In this document: positions 14,544 through 16,409 of the stretch, in pieces
Numbering within the stretch: position 1 is the stretch's first letter
How the letters are laid out: the number at the start of each line of letters is the position of its first letter
From: Baekduia alba
Lineage (GTDB): Bacteria; Actinomycetota; Thermoleophilia; Solirubrobacterales; Solirubrobacteraceae
Assembly (NCBI RefSeq): GCF_028416635.1
Contig: NZ_CP114013.1
Coordinates: forward strand, 1,054,001-1,118,000
Direction of reading: 5' to 3'
DNA length: 64,000 nucleotides
The notes under the pieces: model-generated
What the model saw: only the letters and a program-made list of their open reading frames with translations
What the model was told of the DNA's origin: nothing
The model's database searches: none
Position numbers and translations under genes: made by a program

Positions 14544-15947
14544 CTAGTCCAGCTTGGGTGACGTCCACGGTTGGGCCAGGCGCAGCGACAGGTTGTCGGC
14601 CAGCTCGTCGATCGCGATGCGCTCCTGGCCGAGCGAGTCGCGGTCGCGCACGGTGACCGTCCGGTCCTCGAGCGACTGGTGGTCGATCGTCACGCACCAC
14701 GGCGTCCCGATCTCGTCCTGGCGGCGGTAGCGCTTGCCGATCGAGCCGCCTTCGTCGTACTCGGTCTGCATGCGCGCCTTGAGCAGCTTCTGGACCTCAG
14801 CGGCGAGCTCCGGCTGGCCGTCCTTGCGGACGAGCGGCAGGATCGCGACCTTCACGGGCGCGAGGCGCGGGTGCAGGCGCAGGACGGTCCGGACGTCGGA
14901 CTTGGCCGGGTCGTCGCTCAGCTCCTCCTCGTCGTAGGCGTCGGCCAGGAACGCGAGGACCGAGCGGCCGACGCCGGCGGCCGGCTCGATGACGTGCGGG
15001 ACGTAGCGGCGGCCGTCGGGCTCGACGACCTCGATGTCCTTGCCCGAGCCCTTGGCGTGGGCGGTCAGGTCGAAGTCGCCGCGGTTGGCGATGCCCTCCA
15101 GCTCCGACCAGCCGATCGGGAAGAGGTACTCGACGTCGGCGGTGCCCGACGAGTAGTGGCTGAGCTCGTCGGCGTCGTGGGCGCGCAGGCGCAGGTGGTC
15201 CGGACGCAGGCCCAGGTTCACGTACCAGTCGAACCGCGCCTGCTTCCAGTGCTCGTACCAGTCGGGCGCCTGCTCCGGCGGGACGAAGAACTCCATCTCC
15301 ATCTGCTCGAACTCGAGCGTGCGGAAGATGAAGTTGCCGGGCGTGATCTCGTTGCGGAACGACTTGCCGACCTGCGCGATCCCGAACGGCGGGCGGCGGC
15401 GGGCGAAGGTCAGGACCGTCTTGAAGTCCAGGAAGATGCCCTGCGCGGTCTCGGGGCGCAGGAAGACGCGCTGGCCGCCGCCCTGGACGGGGCCGATCGC
15501 GGTCTCGAACATCAGGTTGAACTCGCGCGGCTCGGTGAGCTCGCACTCCTCGGTCCCGCCCGGGAGCTTGGACGGCTTGCGCCCGCAGCGGATCTCGGGC
15601 TGGGAGTCCGGGTTCTCGCGCGCCTCGGCGAGATGGTCGGCGCGGAAGCGTCGCTTGCAGGTCTTGCAGTCGACGAGCGGATCGGTGAAGCCCGCGAGGT
15701 GGCCCGACGACTCCCAGGTCTTGGGGTGCTGGATGATCGCGGAGTCCAGGGCCACGACGTCGTCGCGCTCCTGCAGCATCGCGTCCCACCAGGCGTCGAT
15801 CACGTTGCGCTTGAGCAGGACGCCGTAGTGACCGTAGTCGTAGGTGTTGGCGATCCCGCCGTAGATCTCGCTGGCAGGGAAGATCAGGCCGCGGCGCTTG
15901 CACAGCGCCACGATCTTGTCCATCGTCACGACGTCCTGGGTGGGCAC
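14544..15947 (-). CDS. glyS: Glycyl-tRNA synthetase (alpha2 type)
   Basis: A 467-residue class II aminoacyl-tRNA synthetase that charges tRNA-Gly. Motif 1 lies around GGIANTYDYGHYGVLLK. An insertion with CKTC...C holds putative zinc ligands. Motif 2 is SFRNEITPGNFIFRTLEFEQ, with the Glu-rich strand EMEFF. The C-terminal anticodon-binding domain begins at KVAILPLV and contains GSIGKRYRRQDEIGTPWCVT. Length matches the homodimeric type of actinobacteria. GTG 15947 is chosen because a TAAAGT box ends 7 nt before it; the internal ATG 15923 is the alternative. Confidence 0.96.
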   Translation of the reverse strand: MPTQDVVTMDKIVALCKRRGLIFPASEIYGGIANTYDYGHYGVLLKRNVIDAWWDAMLQERDDVVALDSAIIQHPKTWESSGHLAGFTDPLVDCKTCKRRFRADHLAEARENPDSQPEIRCGRKPSKLPGGTEECELTEPREFNLMFETAIGPVQGGGQRVFLRPETAQGIFLDFKTVLTFARRRPPFGIAQVGKSFRNEITPGNFIFRTLEFEQMEMEFFVPPEQAPDWYEHWKQARFDWYVNLGLRPDHLRLRAHDADELSHYSSGTADVEYLFPIGWSELEGIANRGDFDLTAHAKGSGKDIEVVEPDGRRYVPHVIEPAAGVGRSVLAFLADAYDEEELSDDPAKSDVRTVLRLHPRLAPVKVAILPLVRKDGQPELAAEVQKLLKARMQTEYDEGGSIGKRYRRQDEIGTPWCVTIDHQSLEDRTVTVRDRDSLGQERIAIDELADNLSLRLAQPWTSPKLD

Positions 15948-15960
15948 GCGCGCCACTTTA
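15948..15960 (-). promoter_or_regulatory. -10 box of glyS, leaderless
   Basis: On the minus strand TAAAGT (15960-15955) plus 7 nt leads directly into the GTG at 15947, with no ribosome-binding site. Confidence 0.55.
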
Positions 15961-16006
15961 CCCACGGCCTGTGTCTGAGCCCGTGCCGTGGCGGCAAGAG
16001 GTTCGA

Positions 16007-16031
16007 TGGCACTCGTATACTCGGAGTGCCA
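16007..16031. promoter_or_regulatory. CIRCE-like HrcA operator over the FmdB-like promoter
   Basis: TGGCACTC-N9-GAGTGCCA has perfect 8-bp arms with a 9-bp spacer. The HrcA/CIRCE consensus is TTAGCACTC-N9-GAGTGCTAA, so core (GCACTC/GAGTGC), spacer and symmetry all match. The spacer contains a near-ideal -10 box, TATACT (16016-16021), and the right arm ends at the base before the ATG at 16032. A bound repressor would cover the -10 box and the start site. Confidence 0.65.
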
Positions 16032-16409
16032 ATGCCCATCTACGAGTACCGACGTCCAAACGGAACCACGTTCGAGGTCATGCAGAAGATGACCGACGAC
16101 CCGCTCACGCACGACCCCGAGTCGGGCCAGCCGGTCGAGCGCGTGTTCCACCCGGTGGCCGTGCACTTCAAGGGCAAGGGCTTCTACAACACCGACTACG
16201 GGACCAAGCGCCGCAACCGCGAGCTGCGCGAGTCCGCCGAGTCGGGGGCCGACAAGTACGAGGCCGGGCAGGCGGAGAAGAAGAAGGAGAAGGACAAGTC
16301 CTCCTCCTCCTCCTCGTCTTCGGACTCGTCCTCGACGTCGTCGTCCAAGCCCAAGGCCGAGAAGAAGTCGTCCTCGGGCGACAAGAAGCCCGCGAAGAAG
16401 TCCGCCTAG
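16032..16409 (+). CDS. FmdB-like protein lacking the zinc-ribbon cysteines
   Basis: A 125-residue protein. Residues 1-58 align with the FmdB/CxxC_CXXC_SSSS zinc ribbon: MPIYEYRRPNGTTFEVMQKM, then DDPLTHDPESGQPVERVF and FKGKGFYNTDY. The family has CxxC pairs where this protein has Arg/Asn and His/Glu, so no Cys remains and zinc binding by the classical site is lost. The C-terminal half is a Lys/Glu stretch and then a Ser-rich, Lys-rich low-complexity tail. The ATG follows directly on a CIRCE-like operator, giving a leaderless, possibly heat-responsive gene. It converges with the LCP gene, with a 4-bp stop overlap. Confidence 0.75.
   Translation: MPIYEYRRPNGTTFEVMQKMTDDPLTHDPESGQPVERVFHPVAVHFKGKGFYNTDYGTKRRNRELRESAESGADKYEAGQAEKKKEKDKSSSSSSSSDSSSTSSSKPKAEKKSSSGDKKPAKKSA

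What the first reader, a model, noticed from the sequence alone, without database searches (positions are those of the whole stretch)
16007..16034. CIRCE-like operator fused to a leaderless FmdB-like promoter
Seen: TGGCACTC-N9-GAGTGCCA has 8-bp perfect arms and the exact CIRCE spacer; the -10 box TATACT is in the spacer and the ATG begins right after the second arm. Known: HrcA binds CIRCE at groESL and dnaK operons. An FmdB-like gene is not a usual HrcA target. Inference: this protein belongs to the heat-shock or HrcA regulon of the organism, and operator, core promoter and start codon are compressed in 28 bp.
Basis: partly seen in the sequence, partly recalled or inferred. Interest (0 to 1): 0.65.

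Follow-up and report, generated by a model that had tools for sequence, protein, structure and literature searches.

The report
Heat-shock switch on chaperone-like gene
A small stress-protein gene in a soil actinobacterium carries the same DNA switch as the cell's main heat-shock genes, with switch, promoter and start codon packed into 28 bases, and its protein has lost the zinc-binding redox sensor that its best-studied relative uses.

Summary
The dyad is real and is a CIRCE operator. In the window's own genome (Solirubrobacteraceae), hrcA is present, and TTGGCACTC-N9-GAGTGCCAA within 3 mismatches occurs at three places only: two in front of groES and this one. An HrcA target of this gene family is not new: Rv0991c (Ruc), the M. 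tuberculosis homologue, is HrcA-repressed (PMC7448276), and 15 of 15 CIRCE-bearing loci found outside the family encode a four-cysteine relative. What is unusual is the layout. In 17 of 17 fused loci across six genera the -10 box TATA[AC]T sits at the same spacer position and ATG follows the arm by 0-1 nt, against 0 of 36 loci where CIRCE lies further upstream. Orthologues without CIRCE keep a -10-like box at a similar distance and lack a Shine-Dalgarno, so the gene is probably (near-)leaderless. The protein has lost all four zinc ligands. In 69 of 69 such ORFs they are replaced by the same residues (R8, T/S12, D28, T/S31) under purifying selection. Ruc with Cys-to-Ser changes is constitutively active, so this may be a redox-blind, HrcA-controlled version. 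No binding, transcript or activity data exist.

The parts
16007..16014 (+). CIRCE left arm TGGCACTC
16015..16023 (+). CIRCE spacer GTATACTCG (9 nt)
   Evidence: position of the -10 inside the spacer kept in 17 of 17 fused loci
16016..16021 (+). -10 box TATACT inside the spacer
   Evidence: TATA[AC]T at spacer positions 2-7 in 17 of 17 fused loci, TAnnnT anywhere in the spacer of 0 of 36 upstream-CIRCE loci. No sigma-70-like promoter pair of consensus type
16024..16031 (+). CIRCE right arm GAGTGCCA, ends on the base before ATG
16032..16409 (+). FmdB/Ruc-like gene, 125 aa, no cysteine (P0001)
   Evidence: PF09723 37 bits (cut-off 34.4); TIGR02605 40.2 bits (cut-off 31.3); orthologues in 110 of 121 family genomes
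16053..16055 (+). codon of Arg8, at the position of the first zinc ligand (Cys8 in zinc-type relatives)
   Evidence: R in 69 of 69 ligandless ORFs, C in 43 of 43 zinc-type ORFs profiled
16065..16067 (+). codon of Thr12, at the position of His12 in zinc-type relatives
   Evidence: T/S in 69 of 69; H in 43 of 43
16113..16115 (+). codon of Asp28, at the position of Cys28
   Evidence: D in 69 of 69; C in 42 of 43
16122..16124 (+). codon of Ser31, at the position of Cys31
   Evidence: T/S in 69 of 69; C in 42 of 43
16242..16406 (+). Ser/Lys-rich C-terminal tail (residues 71-125), predicted disordered
   Evidence: model pLDDT about 51-58 in these blocks
14544..15923 (-). divergent neighbour, class II tRNA synthetase with GlyRS-like sequence (context only)
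   Evidence: PF03129 and PF00587; divergent to the FmdB-like gene in 77 of 110 loci. The name GlyRS is from recall of the sequence, not from a named hit

Best explanation
The 28-bp element is an HrcA operator (CIRCE) merged with the core promoter of a near-leaderless FmdB/Ruc-like gene. At normal temperature HrcA dimers bind the dyad and cover the -10 box and the start region, so RNA polymerase cannot open the promoter. When heat or unfolded protein inactivates HrcA (expected from HrcA biology), the gene is induced together with groESL, the only other CIRCE-controlled unit visible in this genome. The product is a relative of the M. tuberculosis chaperone Ruc in which the four zinc ligands were replaced by a fixed R8/T12/D28/T(S)31 set, probably a zinc-free stabilised fold, while the disordered hydrophilic tail is kept. 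The likeliest function is a heat-induced holdase that no longer needs oxidation to be switched on, so control rests on HrcA. Shown by sequence: operator, hrcA, the three-site regulon, conserved -10 position, conserved ligand replacement, purifying selection. Inferred: HrcA binding, leaderless transcript, heat induction, holdase activity, loss of redox control, a salt bridge between R8 and D28. The confidence below is for the operator/promoter part; for the redox-blind holdase see the section on the most novel reading.
For: hrcA in the genome and in 118 of 121 family genomes. Same arms twice at groES, and only three sites genome-wide at 3 mismatches or fewer. CIRCE core (12 or more of 14 arm bases) in front of the gene in 53 of 110 loci; control windows 8 of 572, all 8 being the true operator of a neighbouring tandem copy. 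Genomes with an exact CIRCE at this gene have median 3 sites (36 genomes), those without median 2 and never more than 2 (35 genomes). -10 at spacer positions 2-7 in 17 of 17 fused loci. SD-like 4-mers in 0 of 58 loci without CIRCE and 2 of 36 with upstream CIRCE. Fused form also in sister family f76 (5 of 8 genomes sampled) and in the cultured Svornostia abyssi (L149). Ruc is HrcA-repressed and heat-induced, and its C-to-S forms are active when reduced (PMC7448276). Replacement residues invariant in 69 ORFs, median dN/dS 0.183 against 0.190 for zinc-type. N-terminal 40 residues modelled at pLDDT about 90.
Against: 57 of 110 loci have no CIRCE (one of them, L064, with only 38 nt of upstream sequence to test), so the control is often lost or never gained; on the HrcA tree CIRCE presence changes at least 11 times and the fused layout 8 times. 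No binding or expression data. In the window the right arm with the base before it reads GGAG, which could act as a Shine-Dalgarno (4 of 17 fused loci have an SD-like 4-mer). No consensus -35. The redox-blind chaperone idea rests on analogy with Ruc mutants; homology of the N-terminal domain does not show that the function is kept. The structure model saw zinc-type homologues in its alignment, so its confidence does not prove a zinc-free fold.
Confidence: 0.8

Rival explanations
1. The dyad is a CIRCE operator but lies in the 5' leader of a conventional mRNA made from a promoter further upstream; GGAG (16023-16026) is the ribosome-binding site and TATACT in the spacer is chance.
For: GGAG 5 nt before ATG in the window; SD-like 4-mers in 4 of 17 fused loci. 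In the distant phylum members (L203-L213) CIRCE is followed by AGGAGG and a GTG start, a leadered layout.
Against: TATA[AC]T at the same spacer position in 17 of 17 fused loci and in no spacer of the 36 others; loci without CIRCE keep a -10-like box mostly 14-17 nt before the start and have no SD-like 4-mer (0 of 58); no sigma-70-like promoter in 15850-16120.
Confidence: 0.12
2. The operator is real, but the ligandless protein is no chaperone: it lost the Ruc function with its zinc site and now serves another role, or is a decaying copy kept by its promoter.
For: All four ligands of the founding Ruc mechanism are gone; no activity data; the tail is low in complexity and evolves freely.
Against: Replacement residues are invariant (69 of 69) and dN/dS is low, 0.183, so it is not decaying; the tail and the HFKGxGF/NTDYGT segment are kept; CIRCE control is kept in both ligandless and zinc-type genera; C-to-S Ruc keeps chaperone activity (PMC7448276).
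Confidence: 0.3
3. The dyad acts as an RNA hairpin at the 5' end of the message (mRNA stability or start-codon masking) rather than, or as well as, a DNA operator.
For: A perfect 8-bp inverted repeat directly before the start codon could pair in RNA if transcribed; a second role of CIRCE in groE mRNA stability is recalled from Bacillus work, not from a call.
Against: If the -10 inside the spacer is used, the left arm is not transcribed. Elsewhere in the family the same dyad lies 25-47 nt upstream with the -10 box between it and ATG, which fits only a DNA site.
Confidence: 0.05

Closest known systems
Ruc (Rv0991c) of Mycobacterium tuberculosis, HrcA/SigH-controlled redox-regulated chaperone (PMC7448276)
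   Same: Small N-terminal zinc-ribbon-like domain with a disordered hydrophilic tail; HrcA is the repressor; co-regulated with groES/groEL; the paper's primer sequences translate to MPTYSYE.TQ.ANRFDVV and DDALTT.ER.SGRLRKLF (mutated Cys positions shown as dots), alignable with the relatives found here.
   Different: Ruc has four zinc cysteines (C8, C11, C29, C32); the window protein has none. At ruc the HrcA site overlaps the SigH site; here it encloses a -10 box of housekeeping type and abuts ATG.
CIRCE/HrcA operators of groESL and dnaK operons
   Same: Inverted repeat with 9-nt spacer, hrcA in the genome, identical arms at groES of the same genome.
   Different: The spacer carries the -10 box and the start codon follows at once; at groES here two operators lie 71 bp apart (centre to centre) before the gene.
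Zinc-free versions of zinc-ribbon ribosomal proteins ('C-minus' forms, e.g. of L31/L36) and cysteine-poor RbpA of mycobacteria (both recalled, no call)
   Same: Zinc ligands lost together while fold and gene are kept.
   Different: Those are not HrcA targets or chaperones; here the replacing residues are one fixed set across a bacterial subfamily.

Membership tests
CIRCE operator | Inverted repeat of about 9 bp with 9-nt spacer, core GCACTC-N9-GAGTGC | tested here: met
   1 mismatch in 18 against TTGGCACTC-N9-GAGTGCCAA; the textbook form TTAGCACTC-N9-GAGTGCTAA is recalled
CIRCE operator | hrcA in the same genome and the same element at groESL | tested here: met
CIRCE operator | Binding by HrcA and derepression by heat | not testable with these tools
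   needs gel shift and expression data
FmdB family zinc ribbon protein (TIGR02605 / PF09723) | Profile score over the curated cut-off | tested here: met
   40.2 over 31.3 bits; 37 over 34.4 bits
FmdB family zinc ribbon protein (TIGR02605 / PF09723) | CxxC...CxxC zinc ligands | tested here: not met
   no cysteine in 125 residues; zinc-type relatives in the family have C8-x3-H12...C28-x2-C31
Ruc redox-regulated chaperone | Four zinc-coordinating cysteines that form disulfides on oxidation | tested here: not met
   no cysteine; so it is filed as a derived relative, not as a Ruc
Ruc redox-regulated chaperone | Hydrophilic disordered C-terminal tail | tested here: met
   Ser/Lys-rich tail, pLDDT about 51-58
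Ruc redox-regulated chaperone | HrcA control | tested here: inconclusive
   operator present, binding not shown
Ruc redox-regulated chaperone | Prevents protein aggregation | not testable with these tools
   needs purified protein
Leaderless gene | -10 box just upstream of the start codon, no Shine-Dalgarno, transcript start at or next to ATG | tested here: inconclusive
   -10 placed 15-16 nt before ATG in 17 of 17 fused loci; SD-like 4-mer in 0 of 58 loci without CIRCE but in 4 of 17 fused ones; start site not measured

The most novel reading that the evidence does not exclude
In a large subclade of Solirubrobacteraceae a Ruc-type chaperone traded its zinc/thiol switch for a fixed polar cluster (R8-D28 salt bridge with T/S12 and T/S31) and became a constitutively competent, zinc-free holdase, so that control moved wholly to transcription. 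That control was in turn compressed, in several genera and a sister family, into a single 28-bp unit in which one HrcA site is at once operator, core promoter and leader of a leaderless mRNA.
Probability: 0.4. Interest if true: 0.65.

Novelty: new variant of a known kind. Interest (0 to 1): 0.5.

Why it matters
It links the HrcA regulon to FmdB/Ruc-like proteins in Actinomycetota well beyond M. tuberculosis: CIRCE stands directly before a four-cysteine homologue in 15 of 15 out-of-family loci that the pattern found, including 11 of 11 sampled genomes of one large-genome genus. It offers a natural experiment on Ruc: dozens of sampled genomes carry a version without the redox switch, with a fixed set of replacement residues, next to sister genera that keep the zinc site, so the roles of zinc, thiols and tail can be tested side by side. 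The fused operator/-10/ATG is about as compact as a repressor-promoter unit can be.

Tried and rejected
A chance dyad was rejected. A decaying zinc ribbon was rejected (dN/dS and invariant replacements). glyS as a stand-in for the species tree (77 rows) was weakly resolved, with one outgroup row misplaced, so it was not used for conclusions. A first HrcA tree used a wrong reading frame by my mistake and is discarded; one search is the corrected tree. On it all 37 ligandless rows lie in one clade (support 97/96, 42 rows) together with 5 zinc-type rows (genera g2, g4, g7), so at least 4 changes are needed and a single loss is not proven. The fold search gave no match at E <= 0.001 (top rows are zinc-ribbon-like domains such as RbpA, not significant). 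No related sequence in the PDB. Paper searches FmdB+HrcA and 'FmdB family'+CIRCE gave 0 papers; 'FmdB family'+heat shock gave 1 paper on Mycobacterium intracellulare, not opened; FmdB+Solirubrobacter gave 1 paper that looks unrelated (listing only); CIRCE+leaderless+HrcA gave 5 papers, none by title on this (listing only). Zinc ribbon + loss of cysteines + paralogs gave 0. The HrcA/CIRCE/Streptomyces/regulon listing (15 papers) was not opened.

Rows left out before the counts: of the match rows, five were not fetched (G113 partial, G015:C385 fragment, G081:C10, G095:C7, G075:C216). The 110 loci therefore stand for 109 genomes (G060 twice) and hold 118 ORFs. G095:C7 was met later with its own CIRCE (L222) and is not in the 53. 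One search listed only part of its match rows; its per-genome counts were complete. In one search the counts of 74 genomes with listed completeness of 90 or more and a fetched locus were typed, and all 74 were used (36 exact, 35 none, 3 with 12-13 of 14). The named loci (80: 15 fused, 17 upstream, 46 none, 2 too short) largely repeat the genomes and are not added to its counts.

Full report
What is there. The window is part of a 5.86-Mb single-contig genome (G000:C1:1054001-1118000). Named relatives found with the protein alignment are mostly Solirubrobacteraceae and Solirubrobacterales. At 16007-16034 the sequence reads TGGCACTC GTATACTCG GAGTGCCA ATG. The match to TTGGCACTC-N9-GAGTGCCAA has 1 mismatch in 18 specified bases, and 0.01 such matches (up to 3 mismatches) are expected per window by shuffling. 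The ORF 16032-16409 codes for 125 residues and passes the cut-offs of PF09723 (37 over 34.4 bits) and TIGR02605, 'FmdB family zinc ribbon protein' (40.2 over 31.3 bits).

Is it a CIRCE of this organism? The genome has one hrcA (154 bits). The core GCACTC-N9-GAGTGC occurs at five places: this one, two before a gene whose product begins MKLKPLGDRLIVRAVEEE (Cpn10, 51 bits), and two others (L002, L003) with different flanks (CAGGCACTC...GAGTGCCTG). With the full 18 bases and up to 3 mismatches only three places remain: both groES sites and this one (the reversed pattern matches once).

Is it conserved? In 121 genomes of the family, 110 have an orthologue; 110 loci from 109 genomes were read, with 118 ORFs. 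A dyad with at least 12 of 14 core arm bases lies within 150 nt of the start in 53 of 110 loci. Control windows gave 8 of 572, and all 8 are the true operator of the first copy of a tandem pair. hrcA is present in 118 of 121 genomes. The exact 14-base core has a typical count of three per genome where the gene carries it (median 3, 36 genomes) and two or fewer where it does not (median 2, 35 genomes, maximum 2). The FmdB-like gene is thus the usual third CIRCE site beside a pair that, in the window's genome, lies at groES.

Three layouts. Fused, 17 loci in six genera (g1, g4, g6, g7, g10, g14): TATA[AC]T at spacer positions 2-7 in 17 of 17, ATG 0-1 nt after the 7-base arm. Upstream, 36 loci (g1, g8, g13, g19, g22, g23, g25): the dyad ends 25-47 nt before the start; no TAnnnT in any of 36 spacers; -10-like box 12-16 nt before the start. 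None, 65 ORFs (58 without the second tandem copies of g19): -10-like box mostly 14-17 nt before the start. SD-like 4-mers at -16 to -5: 0 of 58 (none), 2 of 36 (upstream), 4 of 17 (fused). The promoter is therefore read as near-leaderless with or without CIRCE, and CIRCE as an add-on that covers either the -10 (fused) or the region upstream of it. The transcript start has not been measured. The fused form also occurs in the sister family f76 of the same order (5 of 8 genomes sampled) and in named organisms such as Svornostia abyssi (L149), so it is either old or arose repeatedly. On the HrcA tree the fused label changes at least 8 times and CIRCE presence 11 times, which shows that this region is labile.

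Beyond the order. A pattern of CIRCE, 0-30 nt, then a start matching MPxYxY found 19 of 396 genomes over the phylum (reversed control 0). All 15 proteins have the four cysteines C8, C11, C29, C32 and a Ser-rich tail. Two of them scored 70 and 71 bits for TIGR02605.

What is known. Becker et al. 2020 (PMC7448276; I saw the outline and abstract, passages and section 8) report that in M. [quoted passage not shown] Ruc is heat-induced, binds one zinc through four cysteines, has a disordered tail needed for activity, becomes a chaperone on oxidation and, with cysteines changed to serine, is active without oxidation. The paper does not use the word FmdB, which may be why the link is easily missed. 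Primer sequences printed in the paper translate to residues that align with the relatives found here.

What is different in the protein. Family members come in two kinds: 44 ORFs of the type C8-x3-H12...C28-x2-C31 (the second cysteine of Ruc seems to have been exchanged for a histidine) and 69 ORFs, the window's among them, with no ligand. Five more are partial. In all 69 the four positions hold R8, T or S12, D28 and T or S31, and G11, P29 and G32 are invariant. Selection is equally strict in both kinds (median dN/dS 0.183 over 1284 pairs and 0.190 over 273 pairs; pairs of related sequences are not independent). On the corrected HrcA tree all 37 ligandless rows lie in one supported clade (97/96) with 5 zinc-type rows; at least 4 changes are needed. 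One loss followed by re-acquisition fits the identical replacement residues best, but this is not proven. A model built from 26 homologues folds residues 1-40 with pLDDT about 90 and leaves the tail at about 51-58. The closest solved folds are zinc-ribbon-like but not significant. I infer that R8 and D28 face each other where zinc sat; coordinates could not be measured here.

Mechanism. Repression by HrcA on the fused site would cover -10 and start region directly. Heat-driven release would induce the gene with groESL. Because Ruc with cysteines changed to serine is active, the ligandless protein may be a holdase under transcriptional control alone. This last step is analogy, not a result.

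Verdict. That an FmdB-like gene is an HrcA target is already known from M. tuberculosis and appears to be common in Actinomycetota. New, as far as these searches show, are the fused operator/-10/ATG layout and the concerted, conserved loss of the zinc site in an HrcA-controlled Ruc relative.

Noticed in passing
   Followed up: partly
L118 (G008, same genus as the window): Close behind the ligandless, CIRCE-controlled gene lies a second FmdB-like gene with cysteines at 8, 27 and 30, so a zinc-type paralogue can sit beside the ligandless one.
   Followed up: no
L002 around 1251-1525 and L003 around 1252-1525 (G000:C1 near 4075331 and 4152114): Two further dyads CAGGCACTC-N9-GAGTGCCTG, 76.8 kb apart, each about 108 nt from a 140-bp stretch that is 80% alike in the two places and ends like a tRNA 3' half; ARAGORN finds no tRNA and Rfam nothing above its cut-offs.
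   Followed up: partly
window 14544-16409: The FmdB-like gene is divergent to a GlyRS-like class II tRNA synthetase gene in 77 of 110 loci of the family; a shared intergenic region might let CIRCE affect both.
   Followed up: no
G022:C1:24601, G022:C1:50830, G022:C10:120429: One genome of genus g22 has seven CIRCE-core sites, three of them near-identical (GGCACTCGYGCCCGYCGAGTGCC), perhaps a repeat or coding motif rather than operators.
   Followed up: no
L116 (G060) and L117 (G015): Divergent FmdB-like copies with R8 but a cysteine at 28, possible intermediates between the zinc-type and ligandless forms.
   Followed up: no
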